From positions 1 to 35,910 of IMG/VR virus record IMGVR_UViG_3300035670_000713: a stretch of 35,910 nucleotides of DNA; one strand, 5' to 3'. The notes below the pieces were generated by a model, which was not told the DNA's origin, ran no database searches, and saw only the letters and a program-made list of their open reading frames with translations. Every line of letters starts with the position of its first letter. Position 1 is the first letter of the stretch. Source of the stretch: a virus. Shown here piece after piece: positions 9,221-35,828 of this stretch. The translations under genes were made by a program, and so were the position numbers.

Positions 9221-9562
9221 ATGACCGACGGTCCTCTGATCGACCTGGCCGTGTTCGGCCGACACCTACGAGCCGCGCGCATCCTCGCCGGCTACGACAA
9301 CGTCGCCCCAGCCGCCGCCCACATCACCGAATGCACCGGGGTCCACGTAACCGAGCGCATACTCGGGGCGATCGAACGCGGCGACCAGATGCCCACCCTC
9401 GAGCAGTTCCTCGCCATCGGATACTGCCTCCGGCCCCCCGGTGGCGGAGCGTTCTGGGCCCCTGCCCTGCGCCCCGACATCGCGGCAGGCTGGGTCGAGG
9501 AGCTCGACGAACAGGAGGTCCGCAGACATGGCAAGCCTGCAGCACCGCCCGGACCGCTCTAA
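9221..9562 (+). CDS. Putative immunity repressor (XRE-like)
   Basis: A 113-residue protein. LAVFGRHLRAARILAGYDNV and VTERILGAIERGDQMPTLEQ surround a diverged HTH, with a longer than usual second loop (APAAAHITECTGVHVTER). LAIGYCLRPPGGGAFWAPAL follows. It probably represses the lytic promoter across the TACG cluster. I chose the ATG at 9221 because AGAGGA lies just upstream and the HTH begins soon after; a longer frame back to 9107 would run through the operators. The gene overlaps the integrase start by 35 bases, so both are made from one transcript. Confidence 0.68.
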   Translation: MTDGPLIDLAVFGRHLRAARILAGYDNVAPAAAHITECTGVHVTERILGAIERGDQMPTLEQFLAIGYCLRPPGGGAFWAPALRPDIAAGWVEELDEQEVRRHGKPAAPPGPL

Positions 9563-10652
9563 GCCGTGGCGGGTCCGGTGGCGTGACGCCCAGGGGCACG
9601 GCCAGTCGAAGGCGTTCGCCCGGAAGCGGGACGCCCTGACGTACCTGCACGACCTGGAGGTGCGCCTCGATCGCGGGCAGGCTGTGCGCCGAGACGCGGG
9701 CCGGGCAGGGTTCGGGGAACTCGCCGAGCAGTGGCTGGCGAACAAGGCCACCGCCGGACGCAAGCCGTCCACCGTCGCCGGGTACCGGTCGATCCTTGAC
9801 CACCTGGTGCTGCCGGAGTTCGGGCGGGAACCGGTCGGGGCGATCACGTACGCGCGGCTCACCGCGTGGGCGTCGACGCTCGAGCACCTGTCCGGGTCTC
9901 GACGTAGGCACGCGATCGGTGTCGTCGCCGGCGTCCTGGACCTGGCGATCAGGGTCGGGGAGATCGACAGCAACCCGGCGCGCCTCCTGGACATGCCGCG
10001 GGCCACACCTCGACGCCGGCACCGGTACCTCGACCACCGGAAGCTGCACACCCTGGCCGACGCGTGCGGCGACCACCGCGCCCTCGTCCTGCTGCTCGGG
10101 TACTGCGGGCTGCGCTGGGGTGAGGCGGTCGCACTGCGCGGAACGGACGTCGACCGGAGGCGGGGGCTGATTCACGTCGACCGGGCGCAGTCGGAGGTCC
10201 GGGGACGGCTGACCTACGTCGCGCCGAAGACCCACCAGCGGCGGGACGTGCCCGTGCCGGACCTGGTCCTCGACCTACTGCCGGACACCGGCGAGGGCCT
10301 TACCTTCACCGCGGCCCGTGGAGGCCCACTGAGGCACCGAAACTTCGTCAGGGATACATGGGACCCCGCGACCACTTCTAGCGGCTTGACGGGCCTCAGA
10401 TTGCACGAGCTGCGGCACACCGCCGCGAGCCTCGCCAGGGCAGCCGGTGCGGACGCGTTCGTCGTAGCTCGCATGCTCGGCCACGGGGACGCCTCGATCA
10501 CTGCCCGCACCTACGCAGACCTGTTCGACGTGGAGCTCGAGGTCATGCGCCGGCGGATGGATGCTGCAGCGGCCGCCGCGTTGGGTCACACTGGGGCCAC
10601 ACCAGAACGTGAAACTGGGGGACATTGGGGGACGCGGAGGGACGTAGGGTAG
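9528..10652 (+). CDS. int: Tyrosine recombinase integrase
   Basis: A 374-residue phage integrase. The N-terminal part includes an AP2-like arm-binding region (RWRDAQGHGQSKAFARKRDA), then a SAM-like core-binding domain (about 60-155). The catalytic domain shows R196 (GLRWGEA), H293 and R296 (HELRHTAAS), H319 (MLGH) and the nucleophile Y329 (TARTYADLF). It joins attP to a host attB. The ATG at 9528-9530 has a perfect AGGAGGT eight bases upstream. The 3' end of the gene encodes repeated TGGG motifs at DNA level that may be arm sites, and a tRNA gene follows within 40 bases, the expected attP location. Confidence 0.95.
   Translation: MASLQHRPDRSKPWRVRWRDAQGHGQSKAFARKRDALTYLHDLEVRLDRGQAVRRDAGRAGFGELAEQWLANKATAGRKPSTVAGYRSILDHLVLPEFGREPVGAITYARLTAWASTLEHLSGSRRRHAIGVVAGVLDLAIRVGEIDSNPARLLDMPRATPRRRHRYLDHRKLHTLADACGDHRALVLLLGYCGLRWGEAVALRGTDVDRRRGLIHVDRAQSEVRGRLTYVAPKTHQRRDVPVPDLVLDLLPDTGEGLTFTAARGGPLRHRNFVRDTWDPATTSSGLTGLRLHELRHTAASLARAAGADAFVVARMLGHGDASITARTYADLFDVELEVMRRRMDAAAAAALGHTGATPERETGGHWGTRRDVG
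10582..10635. repeat. Tandem TGGG-type repeats, candidate integrase arm sites (left)
   Basis: Within the 3' end of int there are two tandem pairs: TGGGTCACAC (10582-10591) with TGGGGCCACAC (10592-10602), and TGGGGGACAT (10616-10625) with TGGGGGACGC (10626-10635). The first pair matches the exact tandem repeat on the far side of the tRNA at 10825-10846 in sequence, orientation and spacing. Paired direct repeats flanking a core are how lambda-type integrases mark attP arms. Confidence 0.5.
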
Positions 10653-10689
10653 ATGCGAAGCCGCAGGTAAATGTGACTTTGCGCAGTTC

Positions 10690-10766
10690 GGGGCGGTAGC
10701 TCAGTCGGTCAGAGCAGCGGACTCATAATCTGTTGGTTCCAGGTTCGAGCCCTGGCCGCCCCACCA
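10690..10766 (+). tRNA. tRNA with anticodon CAT (elongator Met or Ile2), CCA encoded
   Basis: A full cloverleaf can be drawn. The acceptor GGGGCGG pairs with CCGCCCC, the D stem is GCTC/GAGC, the anticodon loop CTCATAA has CAT at 10724-10726, and the T arm is CCAGG-TTCGAGC-CCTGG. A discriminator A (10763) and an encoded CCA (10764-10766) follow. The anticodon stem GCGGA/TCTGT has two G-T wobbles. The first pair is G-C, so it is not an initiator tRNA; Met and Ile2 (lysidine-modified C34) cannot be separated by eye. It lies 37 bases after int, so it probably is, or overlaps, attP. Confidence 0.9.
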
Positions 10767-10790
10767 TAGAACCCGCAGGTCAAGGGGCTA

Positions 10791-10811
10791 GTCCCGTCTC
10801 ATACACGGGAC
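10791..10811. terminator. Hairpin between tRNA and endolysin gene
   Basis: GTCCCGT (10791-10797) and ACGGGAC (10805-10811) form a perfect 7-bp stem around a 7-base loop. It sits between the end of the plus-strand repressor-integrase-tRNA transcript and the end of the minus-strand late genes, where a bidirectional terminator is expected. No T-run follows. It could instead be part of attP. Confidence 0.45.
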
Positions 10812-10824
10812 CCGCCCCGGTCAT

Positions 10825-10846
10825 TGGGTCACGCCTGGGTCACGCC
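10825..10846. repeat. Exact tandem 11-bp repeat, candidate integrase arm sites (right)
   Basis: TGGGTCACGCC occurs twice without a gap (10825-10835 and 10836-10846), ending four bases before the endolysin stop codon. It shares TGGGTCAC with the repeat at 10582-10591 on the other side of the tRNA and runs in the same direction. Together the two blocks bracket the presumed crossover at similar distances of about 110 to 140 bases. Confidence 0.5.
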
Positions 10847-10850
10847 AGGA

Positions 10851-29149: not shown

Positions 29150-29379
29150 GTGTCACTCCCCGGTAGCCGCTGCATCCACGCAACCATCTGGCGCGGGATG
29201 ATGGCTTCACCGTCGACGTCCTCCGTCGTGTCGGAGGTGAGGTACTTCGCGTGCTGGAGCACGACGCAGTCCCGGTAGACGCCGACGAGGACGCCTCGGA
29301 TGCTGGCTCCGCCCGTGGTGTGGACGACGATCGTCTCCCGCACCAGACGCGAAAGCCAGTTCACCCTCCACATGGTCAC
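29146..29379 (-). CDS. Small Sm-fold-like protein
   Basis: A 77-residue protein. RETIVVHTTGGASIRGVLVG and VYRDCVVLQHAKYL resemble the Sm1 strand pattern (VxVxxxxGxxxxGxLxxxDxxxxL), and GEAIIPRQMVAWMQRL the shorter Sm2 block. Sm-fold proteins form rings and bind RNA, but small barrels of this type also occur in phage structural proteins. The GTG start at 29377-29379 overlaps the glycosyltransferase stop; an ATG at 29371-29373 is the alternative. The fold call is tentative. Confidence 0.6.
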   Translation of the reverse strand: MTMWRVNWLSRLVRETIVVHTTGGASIRGVLVGVYRDCVVLQHAKYLTSDTTEDVDGEAIIPRQMVAWMQRLPGSDT

Positions 29380-30455
29380 GGTGTAGTCACGACCTCACTG
29401 AGGATCGCGTGCCACTCTTGGCCGCGCTGCGTGATCGAGAACTCCTGCGACACGAGTGCGCGCTGCCGTGCTGCTTCGCGCTTGCGCACGGCGGGGTCGA
29501 GGAGGTCGGTGAGGTGCTTGACCCATTCCTCGGCTGTGGAGGCGACGCGGCCGATGCCGAGCTCGGCGAGCCGCACGTACTCCGGTGTCGCAGCGGCGAC
29601 GAACGGGATGCCAGCGGCGGCGTACTCGAGGCCTTTGATCGTCGACTTCGCGTGGTTAAACGGGATGTCGGTCAGCGGCACGAGGCCGACCTCGAACCCG
29701 GAGAACAGGTTCGGGTAGTCCAGAATCGGGCGCATCGGATACGTCGACACGAGGTGCTCGGGCACGCCCGTCTTCGACCAGAACCGCTCCGGGCGTTTGT
29801 CGAGGTGCCCGGAGTGGTGCACGCGTAGGTCGTGCTCGGCGATGAAGCCTGGCAGCCACTCGGCGAGCGTCTCGAGGTCGCCTGACCGCCACGGGATGCC
29901 ACCGACCCAGCCGAGCGTCGGCTTCCACCCTGCGCGGTCTTTCACACGCGTGTACCTGGCGAAGTCCACGCCGTTACGGACGAGCTGGACGTTTGGGTGC
30001 CGCTGCATGTACCAGTCGCGCAGGAACGGCGTCGACGTGACCACGACGTCCGCGGCCTCGATGACGCGCTCGTAGTGGTCGCGGTTCCGGTCAGGGTTGA
30101 AGTCCGGGTCGGTGACGCGGTGCGCCTGGTTGTCCGGGGTGAGCCCGGCGTAGAAGTCGTCGACGTCGACGATCACCTTCTGCACCTTGCGGGCCTGCAG
30201 CACCTGGTGCGGGGTATCGCGCTGCATGAGTAGCTTGAGCACGACGACGTCCCAGCCGGAGATGACCGTCTGCTGGTCGTAGCGAATACCGAAGCCGCGG
30301 GCGACGTCCCACGCCGGGATGCCCATGCCGACCTCCCAGCCGCGAGCCTTCAGCTCGTGCATCGGCAGGTAGCACCGGTACCAGGCGCAGCCTCCCGGTT
30401 GCAGTGGTCGCGTGCCCGGTGAGAAGTCAGTCGTACAAAAGCCGACGCTAGGCAT
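29376..30455 (-). CDS. Glycosyltransferase, GT-B fold (GT4-like)
   Basis: A 359-residue protein: N-terminal GGCAWYRCYLPMHELKARGW, then a Rossmann-type domain (WDVVVLKLLMQRDTPHQVLQ, VQKVIVDVDDFYAGL, ADVVVTSTPFLRDWYMQRHP, VQLVRNGVDFARY). The C-terminal donor-binding domain has PTLGWVGGIPWRSGDLETLA and STIKGLEYAAAGIPFVAAAT, with E at the usual nucleotide-sugar position. It should transfer a sugar from an activated donor, perhaps to a virion protein or host surface molecule. Phage GT4-like genes in structural modules occur in other actinobacteriophages. It overlaps the DUF6378-like gene by 8 bases. Confidence 0.85.
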   Translation of the reverse strand: MPSVGFCTTDFSPGTRPLQPGGCAWYRCYLPMHELKARGWEVGMGIPAWDVARGFGIRYDQQTVISGWDVVVLKLLMQRDTPHQVLQARKVQKVIVDVDDFYAGLTPDNQAHRVTDPDFNPDRNRDHYERVIEAADVVVTSTPFLRDWYMQRHPNVQLVRNGVDFARYTRVKDRAGWKPTLGWVGGIPWRSGDLETLAEWLPGFIAEHDLRVHHSGHLDKRPERFWSKTGVPEHLVSTYPMRPILDYPNLFSGFEVGLVPLTDIPFNHAKSTIKGLEYAAAGIPFVAAATPEYVRLAELGIGRVASTAEEWVKHLTDLLDPAVRKREAARQRALVSQEFSITQRGQEWHAILSEVVTTP

Positions 30456-33711: not shown

Positions 33712-34176
33712 CTACCCGTCGATCTCGCGGTTCAGGCTCGACAGGATCGACTCGCCGGCGAGCTGCATCAGGCCCAGGCGAAGTCTCGAGGCGAGCGTCA
33801 GGCCGAACTCGTTCGCCAGTCGCAGGTATGTCGCGGCTTCGTCGCGCGCCACCTTGACGAGCGGGTTCACCATCGGGCCACGCGGTCCTTTGACAAGGAC
33901 GCCCGTCTCCATGATCTTCTCCCGAGCCTCGCGGTGGATGTGCGCCGAGTAGCACATCATCGCGATCGACTCGAGGTCCGCGTCACGCAAGCCACGAGGC
34001 GCGAGCTCGACGATGACGCGCTGCCACATCTCCTGGGCGGCCGGAGGGAGGTCGGCCGGAGGCTCGGGCAGCGTCGTCTTGGGCAGGGCCACGATCTCGG
34101 TCGTCTTCGCTTGCCCTGCCTGCGGACGGTTGCCTGTGCCGCGACGAGCTCGTGTCGGGTCCGCCGGCCTACCCAT
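33712..34176 (-). CDS. terS: Terminase small subunit, P27 type
   Basis: A 154-residue protein. A basic N-terminal tail (GRPADPTRARRGTGNRPQAG), PEPPADLPPAAQEMWQRVIV, the helical core GLRDADLESIAMMCYSAHIH, GVLVKGPRGPMVNPLVKVAR and ATYLRLANEFGLTLASRLRL match the P27-type small terminase family. It recognises the packaging site and loads TerL. It overlaps the methyltransferase gene by 8 bases. The packaging site is expected upstream, near the right window end. Confidence 0.9.
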   Translation of the reverse strand: MGRPADPTRARRGTGNRPQAGQAKTTEIVALPKTTLPEPPADLPPAAQEMWQRVIVELAPRGLRDADLESIAMMCYSAHIHREAREKIMETGVLVKGPRGPMVNPLVKVARDEAATYLRLANEFGLTLASRLRLGLMQLAGESILSSLNREIDG

Positions 34177-35437
34177 CGGTCACCTGCTCGGCTTTGCAGT
34201 TGGTCAGCTTCTCCCAGCGTTCGAGGATGACGTCGGCGTAGCGCGGGTCCTTCTCGATCGTGTAGCACCGGCGGTCCATCTGTGCCGCAGCGATGAGTGT
34301 GCTGCAGCGGCCGCCAAACGGATCGAGGACGATGTCTCCCCTTTTCGTGCTGTTGGCCAGCATGCGGGCAACGAGAGGGACCGGCTTCATGGTCGGGTGC
34401 TCGCCGTTGCGCCTCGGCTTGTCCTCACGGAGCACCGTCGAGTTGTCGCGGATCTCCTCCAGGATCGCCACGAGGTCCGCCTTCTTGAGGGCGGACAAGT
34501 CTGTCTCCTCATCGAGGACGGTTGCTTTGACGCGGCGGCCGTACCACGAGTGCGCTGCGCCAGGCTTCCATCCGTACAGGATTGGCTCGTGTTGCCAGTG
34601 GTAGTCCTGCCGGCTGAGCACGAATGTGTCCTTGACCCATATCAGGCACTGCTTGAGGTAGAAGCCTGAGTCGACGAGTGCTTTGCGGAAGATGCCGCCG
34701 CCCGTGTCTGAGTGGCAGACGTAGATGCCTGCACCAGGTGCGGCGGACTCGAACATTCGGTCGTAGGCGGCTCGGATGAACGCGGCGAAGTCGTCCTCGC
34801 TCATCTCGTCGTTCTGGATCGTAAGAGCTTCTTTGGTGCCGCCGACGTACGCCACGTTGTAGGGCGGATCAGTGAAGATGCAGTCGGCGAGTTCGCCACC
34901 CATTAAGCGCGCGACGTCGTCGGGGTCGGTGCTGTCGCCGACCAGCAGCCTGTGGCCGCCGAGGTCCCAGAGTTGTCCTGTCTTGGTGCGCGCGGTCTCC
35001 GGCAGCTCTGGCACCTCGTCTTGCACGACCTGCGCGTCCTCGTCCTCGGTGATGTCGAAGCCGAGGTCTTGGATCGACCAGCCCGCCGCATCGAGCTCGA
35101 GGAGGTGCTCAGCGAGAACATTGCTGTCCCACTCAGCGAGCTCGGCGGTCCGGTTGTCGGCGAGCGCGTAGGCGCGTGCTTCCTCGTAGGTCCACCCAGG
35201 AGGGGTGCGCGTGATCGCGACCTCGGTCCAGCCGAGCGACTTGGCTGCTTCGAGTGTGCCGTTGCCCGCGATCACGACATTGTCGTGCGTGACGACCAGC
35301 GGCCGCCGCTGACCGAACCGCTGCAGCGAGTAGGCGATCGCATCCAGGTTGCGCTTGTTGTGCTTGCGCGCGTTGCTCGGGTCCGGGGTCAGGCTCTCGA
35401 CCTTGACGGTCTGAACCTTGAGGTCGGTGCTACTCAT
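34169..35437 (-). CDS. ParB-like nuclease domain fused to DNA N6-adenine/N4-cytosine methyltransferase
   Basis: A 422-residue protein. Residues 1-100 are ParB-like (SLTPDPSNARKHNKRNLDAI, GQRRPLVVTHDNVVIAGNGT, YALADNRTAELAEWD). The methyltransferase has TDPPYNVAY (DPPY 190-193, catalytic) and a C-terminal SAM-binding loop VLDPFGGRCSTLI (372-379). The usual form of this loop is DPFxGSGST, so G-R-C-S is an unusual variant. Phage copies usually protect the phage DNA against restriction. The start at 35435-35437 overlaps the upstream stop by 8 bases; no restriction partner is present. Confidence 0.9.
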   Translation of the reverse strand: MSSTDLKVQTVKVESLTPDPSNARKHNKRNLDAIAYSLQRFGQRRPLVVTHDNVVIAGNGTLEAAKSLGWTEVAITRTPPGWTYEEARAYALADNRTAELAEWDSNVLAEHLLELDAAGWSIQDLGFDITEDEDAQVVQDEVPELPETARTKTGQLWDLGGHRLLVGDSTDPDDVARLMGGELADCIFTDPPYNVAYVGGTKEALTIQNDEMSEDDFAAFIRAAYDRMFESAAPGAGIYVCHSDTGGGIFRKALVDSGFYLKQCLIWVKDTFVLSRQDYHWQHEPILYGWKPGAAHSWYGRRVKATVLDEETDLSALKKADLVAILEEIRDNSTVLREDKPRRNGEHPTMKPVPLVARMLANSTKRGDIVLDPFGGRCSTLIAAAQMDRRCYTIEKDPRYADVILERWEKLTNCKAEQVTDG

Positions 35438-35828
35438 CGGGGGCTCCAAACAGCCGGTCGACCGAGCGGTCGAGCACGGCGGACATGTCGGATGCACGCC
35501 AGGCCAATCCCGGCGGCAGTTCAGGGGCGAGTCGGCTATAGCCCTTCGCCAAGACCCGCGTCTCGACGATCGCTCGGGCCAGCCGGTCAGCAGGGTCGGC
35601 GGCCTCGACGTCAGCGATGATCGCGTCGGCCACCTCGAGCAGGACCTCGCGGGTCTGCGCCTGCACGACCGCAGGGGGAGGTTGCGGCGTGTCTTCGGCT
35701 TCGACCGCGAGGGCTTGCCGATCGCGGTAGGCCTCGGTCCTGCAGCGGGCAGAGCAGTACCGCTTCTTCATGCCGGGGCGCGATCGAGGGGCTACCTCCG
35801 CGCCGCACTGGGGGCAGAGGGCGGGCAT
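35430..35828 (-). CDS. Zinc-ribbon protein upstream of terminase
   Basis: A 132-residue protein. An N-terminal CPQCG...RYCSARCR zinc ribbon (residues 5-30) is followed by an acidic Pro-rich linker (EAEDTPQPPP) and helices (REVLLEVADAIIADVEAADP, ADRLARAIVETRVLAKGYSR). The ribbon is probably for DNA or protein binding. Its place as first gene after the presumed packaging end, ahead of the methyltransferase and terminase, suggests a packaging- or entry-related role. The ATG at 35826-35828 has GGGAGGG upstream; a TTG at 35844 is the alternative. Confidence 0.72.
   Translation of the reverse strand: MPALCPQCGAEVAPRSRPGMKKRYCSARCRTEAYRDRQALAVEAEDTPQPPPAVVQAQTREVLLEVADAIIADVEAADPADRLARAIVETRVLAKGYSRLAPELPPGLAWRASDMSAVLDRSVDRLFGAPDE

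What the first reader, a model, noticed from the sequence alone, without database searches (positions are those of the whole stretch)
10582..10846. Presumed attP contains a whole tRNA-CAT gene flanked by matching tandem arm repeats
Phage attP sites normally carry only the 3' part of a tRNA gene. Here a complete cloverleaf with encoded CCA lies 37 bases after int. It is bracketed by tandem repeats of the same type and orientation: TGGGTCACAC/TGGGGCCACAC on one side and TGGGTCACGCC twice on the other. Two G-T pairs in the anticodon stem suggest a tRNA of mixed origin. Integration might replace or duplicate a whole host tRNA, or the phage may carry its own tRNA and use it as attachment site.
Basis: partly seen in the sequence, partly recalled or inferred. 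Interest (0 to 1): 0.7.

Follow-up and report, generated by a model that had tools for sequence, protein, structure and literature searches.

The report
Phage attachment site holding whole tRNA
A virus of actinobacteria carries, as the landing site it uses to insert into its host's chromosome, a complete copy of a CAT-anticodon (methionine-type) tRNA gene instead of the usual half, so insertion should leave an intact tRNA gene at both ends of the inserted virus.

Summary
A complete tRNA-CAT gene (10690-10766, Rfam 69 bits, encoded CCA) starts 37 bases after a tyrosine integrase gene and sits between two same-orientation 25-base repeat pairs. A phage whose integrase is 70% identical (L002) has the same repeats at the same distances, but holds only the 3' half of tRNA-Asn. 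That half starts exactly at the anticodon loop and matches actinobacterial tRNA-Asn perfectly over 41 bases. This makes the repeats likely arm-type integrase sites and puts the crossover in the anticodon loop. The window therefore really has an attP with a whole tRNA at its core. A third relative, an element in genome G075, carries only a 5' half (42 bases). The window combines both states. Its 5' half fits one actinobacterial family (0-2 differences); its 3' half fits no sampled host (at least 4 differences), so mixed ancestry is likely. Integration should leave a complete tRNA at both junctions; all 16 hybrids tested in silico are recognised as tRNAs. Half-tRNA attPs (3', rarely 5') and phages carrying a separate complementing tRNA (tRNA-dependent lysogeny) are known; a whole tRNA as attP core I did not find described. 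The exact host attB was not found, and nothing has been tested experimentally.

The parts
9528..10652 (+). tyrosine integrase gene, 374 aa
   Evidence: PHROG phrog_1 integrase, E 2e-60; 70% identical to the L002 integrase over 374 columns; the R...HxxRH...GH...Y residues are present in the alignment
10581..10605 (+). arm-type site pair on the integrase side (two 11-base units), inside the 3' end of int
   Evidence: same place in L002 at 10390-10414
10657..10671 (+). inner repeat GAAGCCGCAGGTAAA, 65 bases before the anticodon loop
   Evidence: L002 counterpart at -64
10690..10766 (+). complete tRNA gene, CAT anticodon, encoded CCA
10690..10721 (+). tRNA 5' half lying upstream of the inferred crossover; L002 has unrelated sequence of equal length here
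   Evidence: tRNA positions 1-41 identical to a host tRNA of G225
10722..10728 (+). anticodon loop CTCATAA, inferred strand-exchange region (crossover)
   Evidence: in L002 the identity with host tRNA-Asn starts exactly at this loop; in the G075 element the 5' common core ends 3 bases after it
10729..10766 (+). tRNA 3' half with CCA
10769..10783 (+). inner repeat GAACCCGCAGGTCAA, 47 bases after the loop start
   Evidence: L002 counterpart also at +47
10784..10818 (.). GC-rich hairpin between the tRNA and the distal arm, between convergent int and endolysin genes; possible terminator, no T-run
   Evidence: z -3.4; L002 counterpart z -2.1
10824..10848 (+). distal arm-type site pair (two 11-base units)
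   Evidence: same distance from the loop (102) in L002
10851..11588 (-). endolysin gene, last gene of the leftward late operon that meets int here
   Evidence: phrog_1512, E 7e-20

Best explanation
The stretch is the attP of a temperate, siphovirus-like actinobacteriophage. Two pairs of 11-base arm-type integrase sites bracket a core. The core is not the usual half tRNA but a complete tRNA-CAT gene (elongator Met by ARAGORN; Ile2 not excluded). Strand exchange takes place in the anticodon loop with the matching host tRNA-CAT gene. One junction then holds [phage 5' half + host 3' half] next to int, and the other holds [host 5' half + phage 3' half] next to the endolysin end, so both junctions carry an intact tRNA. 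SHOWN by sequence: complete tRNA, repeat pairs, conserved geometry, relatives with only a 3' or only a 5' half, hybrids still recognised as tRNA. INFERRED: integrase binding to the arms, crossover position in this phage, host attB, expression of the tRNA, and mixed origin of the halves, perhaps by homologous recombination between the two intact tRNA copies of a lysogen or by one aberrant excision.
For: Arms, inner repeats and hairpin are conserved in L002. Arm-to-loop distances are 141 against 139 and loop-to-arm distances 102 against 102 bases (positions). L002's core matches host tRNA-Asn 41/41 starting at the first base of the anticodon loop, with no match before it. The two phages are collinear: terminase 86% identical, at 32.3 kb in the window and 32.6 kb in L002, so the site is inside a phage contig and not at a host junction. 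A related integrase (42%) in G075 has an 11-base arm pair, then a complete same-orientation tRNA, and 77.9 kb away a perfect 42-base 5' fragment followed by the matching arm pair: a 5'-half attP in the same int-to-tRNA orientation. Another relative (41%) in G058 lies next to a tRNA-CAT 87% identical to the window's. The phage 5' half (1-39) differs from family hosts by 0.7 bases on average, against 1.2 between hosts; the 3' half (40-73) by 6.9 against 2.5. All 16 hybrids with eight hosts are called tRNA-CAT.
Against: No host genome with the exact tRNA was found among 396 actinobacterial genomes (best 93%), and no lysogen of this phage was seen. Only one phage with a whole-tRNA attP is known; its close relative lacks it. 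No promoter matched the simple sigma-70 consensus, so expression of the phage tRNA is unproven. The hosts were picked for similarity to the phage tRNA, so the mixed-origin pattern could reflect an unsampled host. Assembly error cannot be excluded without reads.
Confidence: 0.6

Rival explanations
1. A 5'-half attP like that of M. abscessus MabA1 prophages or the G075 element: only the 5' half is the working common core, expressed from a phage promoter after integration, and the 3' half is a leftover from an earlier 3'-half attP.
For: Positions 1-41 are identical to host tRNA, while the 3' half differs from every sampled host. The G075 element (42% integrase, same orientation) works this way. 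MabA1 uses the 5' half of a very similar tRNA-Met.
Against: The 3' half keeps a full T arm, acceptor strand and CCA, with the changed T-stem pair 50-66 compensated, so it does not look decayed. The nearest relative, L002, works with the 3' half. This differs from the best explanation only in which junction matters.
Confidence: 0.2
2. tRNA-dependent lysogeny in the sense of Guerrero-Bustamante and Hatfull: integration uses a short core and destroys a host tRNA, and the complete phage tRNA complements the loss.
For: The phage carries a complete tRNA, as these phages do. Gaia and Nebkiss, which use this mode, are among the phage integrases matched (31% identity), and Gaia has its tRNA-Leu(CAA) downstream of int on the same strand.
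Against: In Gaia the annotated tRNA lies 287 bases past int, beyond tandem GTATGC repeats, and in Mollymur it is also a separate gene. Here the tRNA itself occupies the core position defined by L002. A crossover in it leaves recognisable tRNAs at both junctions, so no loss needs complementing.
Confidence: 0.1
3. The tRNA is ordinary phage cargo that happens to sit beside int; the true core lies elsewhere.
For: Many phages carry tRNA genes (one search lists hundreds with similar tRNAs).
Against: It is the only tRNA in the window, and it lies between conserved repeat pairs with the loop exactly where L002's core starts.
Confidence: 0.05
4. Assembly artefact: reads of the host attB were merged into the phage attP, making a chimeric whole tRNA.
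For: The contig is metagenomic, tRNA genes are short shared sequences, and the two halves differ in affinity.
Against: Sequence homologous to L002 runs up to within about 5-15 bases of the tRNA start on one side and resumes right after CCA on the other. A chimera would need a double switch that also keeps the spacing.
Confidence: 0.05

Closest known systems
Canonical tyrosine-integrase attP with the tRNA 3' half (anticodon-loop class; e.g. mycobacteriophages and most Islander islands)
   Same: Tyrosine integrase, paired repeats flanking the core, anticodon-loop crossover, tRNA target; read directly in the close relative L002
   Different: The canonical attP holds only the 3' part; here the whole gene is present
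5'-half attP: M. abscessus MabA1 prophages at attB-5 (tRNA-Met), and the G075 element found here
   Same: A tRNA 5' half is carried in attP (a very similar tRNA in MabA1); tandem arm-like repeats; in G075 the same int-to-tRNA orientation
   Different: Those carry no 3' half; the MabA1 integrase is only 21% identical and faces the core from its 5' side
tRNA-dependent lysogeny (Fionnbharth, Gaia, Mollymur; PMC10865867)
   Same: A temperate actinobacteriophage with a tyrosine integrase and its own complete tRNA
   Different: There the core is 8-17 bases, the host tRNA is destroyed, and the complementing tRNA is a separate gene; here the tRNA gene occupies the core
Tycheposons (tRNA-bordered islands with a tyrosine recombinase)
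   Same: A tRNA, sometimes tRNA-Met, marks one end near a tyrosine recombinase (PMC10872708)
   Different: Transposon-like islands, not a phage attP; no arm-and-core relation tested

Membership tests
Tyrosine-integrase attP with anticodon-loop crossover | Tyrosine recombinase gene next to the site | tested here: met
   (phrog_1, 2e-60)
Tyrosine-integrase attP with anticodon-loop crossover | Paired arm-type sites on both sides of the core | tested here: met
   by sequence only, binding not tested
Tyrosine-integrase attP with anticodon-loop crossover | Core shared with a host tRNA, crossover in the anticodon loop | tested here: inconclusive
   Read in L002; for the window only by position and by the 5' identity, exact host absent
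Canonical 3'-half tRNA attP | attP holds a 3' fragment, not the whole tRNA | tested here: not met
5'-half attP (MabA1 type) | attP holds the 5' half only | tested here: not met
   Both halves present
[quoted passage not shown]
   Phage tRNA-CAT is present; attB not identified
tRNA-dependent lysogeny | Short core, no functional tRNA rebuilt at either junction | tested here: inconclusive
   In-silico junctions with eight hosts all give complete tRNAs, which speaks against it, but this assumes a crossover in the loop of a matching tRNA
tRNA-dependent lysogeny | tRNA required for viable lysogens | not testable with these tools
   needs phage genetics

The most novel reading that the evidence does not exclude
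A phage attP built on a complete, working tRNA gene: integration conserves a full tRNA at both junctions, and the halves can be swapped with the host's, so the same integrase lineage moves between 3'-half, 5'-half and whole-tRNA attachment. Such elements would be invisible to island finders that look for a tRNA fragment at the far end.
Probability: 0.5. Interest if true: 0.6.

Novelty: new variant of a known kind. Interest (0 to 1): 0.5.

Why it matters
It is a possible link between three known states: 3'-half attP, 5'-half attP, and phages that carry a complementing tRNA. It suggests how an integrase lineage can change which half it carries, and which tRNA it targets (Asn in L002, CAT here), without breaking the host gene. 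It also exposes a blind spot: Islander-type searches reject fragments that lie inside a full-length tRNA (PMC4383910), so integrations flanked by two complete tRNAs would go uncounted and could pass for tRNA gene duplications.

Tried and rejected
Looked for the exact attB in 396 actinobacterial genomes and in the family, order and class of the best match: best whole-tRNA match 93%; the 36-base anticodon-to-T-arm pattern was matched at best with 2 mismatches, in G011. Looked for other phages with the same tRNA core or the same arms in IMG/VR: only L002. Scans with terminase and endolysin gave no further relative that includes the att region. Tested whether L002's 5' flank is a decayed tRNA 5' half: not significant (p 0.18-0.89), so polarity (gain in the window or loss in L002) stays open. 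Elongator Met against Ile2 was not settled: in E. coli the nearest CAT-type tRNA is annotated tRNA-Ile, Mollymur's (Ile2 in the paper, tRNA-Met in GenBank) has a different anticodon stem, and M. abscessus calls the similar gene tRNA-Met. The other same-orientation cases (L070, L178, L196) gave no displaced fragment in the stretches fetched. The suspicion that the contig ends in host DNA was dropped because it is collinear with L002.

Full report
WHAT IS THERE. The window is a phage contig (IMG/VR record of 35,910 bases). Leftward late genes (terminase, portal, protease, capsid, tape measure, tail, endolysin) meet a rightward integrase gene at about 10.7 kb, with replication and regulatory genes to the left. 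The integrase gene (9528-10652) is a tyrosine recombinase. After 37 bases comes a complete tRNA gene with a CAT anticodon and an encoded CCA, 10690-10766. It lies between two 25-base repeats in the same orientation, each made of two 11-base units. The match between flanks (20/25) exceeds all 200 shuffles. The first pair lies inside the 3' end of int.

WHY IT IS THE attP. The only close relative of the integrase found in IMG/VR (L002, 70% identical) has the same repeats after its integrase. The distances agree: first arm to core start 141 and 139 bases, core start to second arm 102 and 102. The inner repeats GAANCCGCAGG lie at -65/-64 and +47/+47, and a hairpin before the second arm is kept in weaker form. 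In L002 the middle holds only the 3' half of a tRNA-Asn gene. Those 41 bases are found without mismatch in 11 of 396 actinobacterial genomes; in ten they are part of a whole tRNA-Asn gene and the identity with L002 begins at the first base of the anticodon loop, while in the eleventh (L043) they are themselves a displaced 3' half. L002 is therefore an ordinary 3'-half attP with an anticodon-loop crossover, and by position the anticodon loop of the window's tRNA (10722-10728) is its crossover. The two phages are collinear elsewhere (terminase 86% identical at the same place), so the site lies inside phage DNA and is not a prophage junction.

WHAT IS UNUSUAL. The window has the tRNA 5' half as well, in the space where L002 has unrelated sequence of the same length. 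L002's sequence there is not detectably a decayed tRNA. Among 101 related integrase genes in 396 actinobacterial genomes, 44 have a complete tRNA within 250 bases pointing toward int, as expected for ordinary integrated elements that rebuild the tRNA there; only 4 have one in the window's orientation, and 53 have none. In one of these four, G075, both ends of the element can be read. The integrase (42% identical) is followed by an 11-base arm pair ACTGCGGTAT x2 and a complete tRNA. A perfect 42-base copy of the tRNA's 5' part lies 77.9 kb upstream and is followed by the second ACTGCGGTAT pair. That element carried the 5' half in its attP. So this integrase clade contains 3'-half, 5'-half and (in the window) whole-tRNA attPs.

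THE TWO HALVES DIFFER IN KINSHIP. Against ten CAT tRNAs from the genomes nearest to the phage tRNA, positions 1-39 of the phage tRNA differ by 0.7 bases on average (host to host 1.2), while positions 40-73 differ by 6.9 (host to host 2.5, at most 5). The changes in the 3' half keep the structure: T-stem pair 50-66 is C-G instead of G-C. This fits separate ancestry of the halves, but the true host was not found and an unsampled host could carry exactly this tRNA.

MECHANISM. Most likely the integrase exchanges strands in the anticodon loop with a host tRNA-CAT gene. Because both halves are present, both junctions keep a complete tRNA. Hybrids between the phage and eight host tRNAs, joined in the loop, are all recognised as tRNA-CAT. 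A related integrase (41%) in G058 lies beside a tRNA-CAT 87% identical to the window's, which supports this tRNA as a target. How the 5' half came in is inference: one aberrant excision joining the phage next to the arm with host DNA just upstream of the tRNA would do it, as would homologous recombination between the two complete tRNAs of a lysogen.

KNOWN SYSTEMS. Half-tRNA attPs are the rule: Islander lists 3760 islands with 3' fragments and 159 with 5' fragments, about half of all islands anticodon-centred (PMC4383910). A 5'-half attP on a very similar tRNA-Met is reported for M. abscessus MabA1 prophages (PMC8092301) and was read here in prophiGD11-1, where tandem GGCTACAGT repeats lie near both ends. 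tRNA-dependent lysogeny (PMC10865867) also involves a phage-borne complete tRNA, but apart from the core. Literature searches for an attP with a complete, entire or whole tRNA gave nothing relevant, but only open-access text was searched. Islander rejects fragments inside full-length tRNAs, so this arrangement would escape it. PMC8092301 mentions cores up to 76 bp for tRNA sites; whether any of those spans a whole tRNA was not checked, and if so that would be the nearest precedent.

LIMITS. One phage, one close relative, no lysogen, no exact attB, no expression evidence, and no identification of the host beyond a group of unnamed actinobacterial genomes (GC of the loci 67-71%, phage 66%).

Noticed in passing
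10657-10671 and 10769-10783: A second repeat pair GAANCCGCAGGTNAA flanks the core inside the arms and is conserved in place in L002; perhaps another protein-binding site (Xis or host factor) or further integrase sites.
   Followed up: partly
10784-10818: A strong GC hairpin without T-run between the convergent int and late operons, kept in weaker form in L002; possible shared terminator.
   Followed up: partly
L215:16500-17000 (G075): The displaced tRNA 5' fragment is preceded by what looks like the 3' end of another related integrase, so several elements seem to be stacked at this tRNA site.
   Followed up: partly
L091 (G026 contig 157), 4471-4779: Two different complete tRNA-Arg(CCT) genes 160 bases apart lie between two integrase genes; possibly stacked elements with one tRNA brought in by an element.
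   Followed up: partly
L043:454-494 (G085): A perfect 3' half of tRNA-Asn without its 5' half: probably the far end of an integrated element using the same attB type as L002.
   Followed up: no
contigs of G023, G062 and G011: The tRNA-Asn and tRNA-CAT genes targeted by L002 and (presumably) the window lie only about 3-11 kb apart in several host genomes.
   Followed up: no
34169-35497: A gene that matches both ParB-like nuclease and DNA methyltransferase families, apparently a fusion.
   Followed up: no
29376-30455 and 155-1336: A glycosyltransferase and a weak sialyltransferase-like match, perhaps morons or decoration genes.
   Followed up: no
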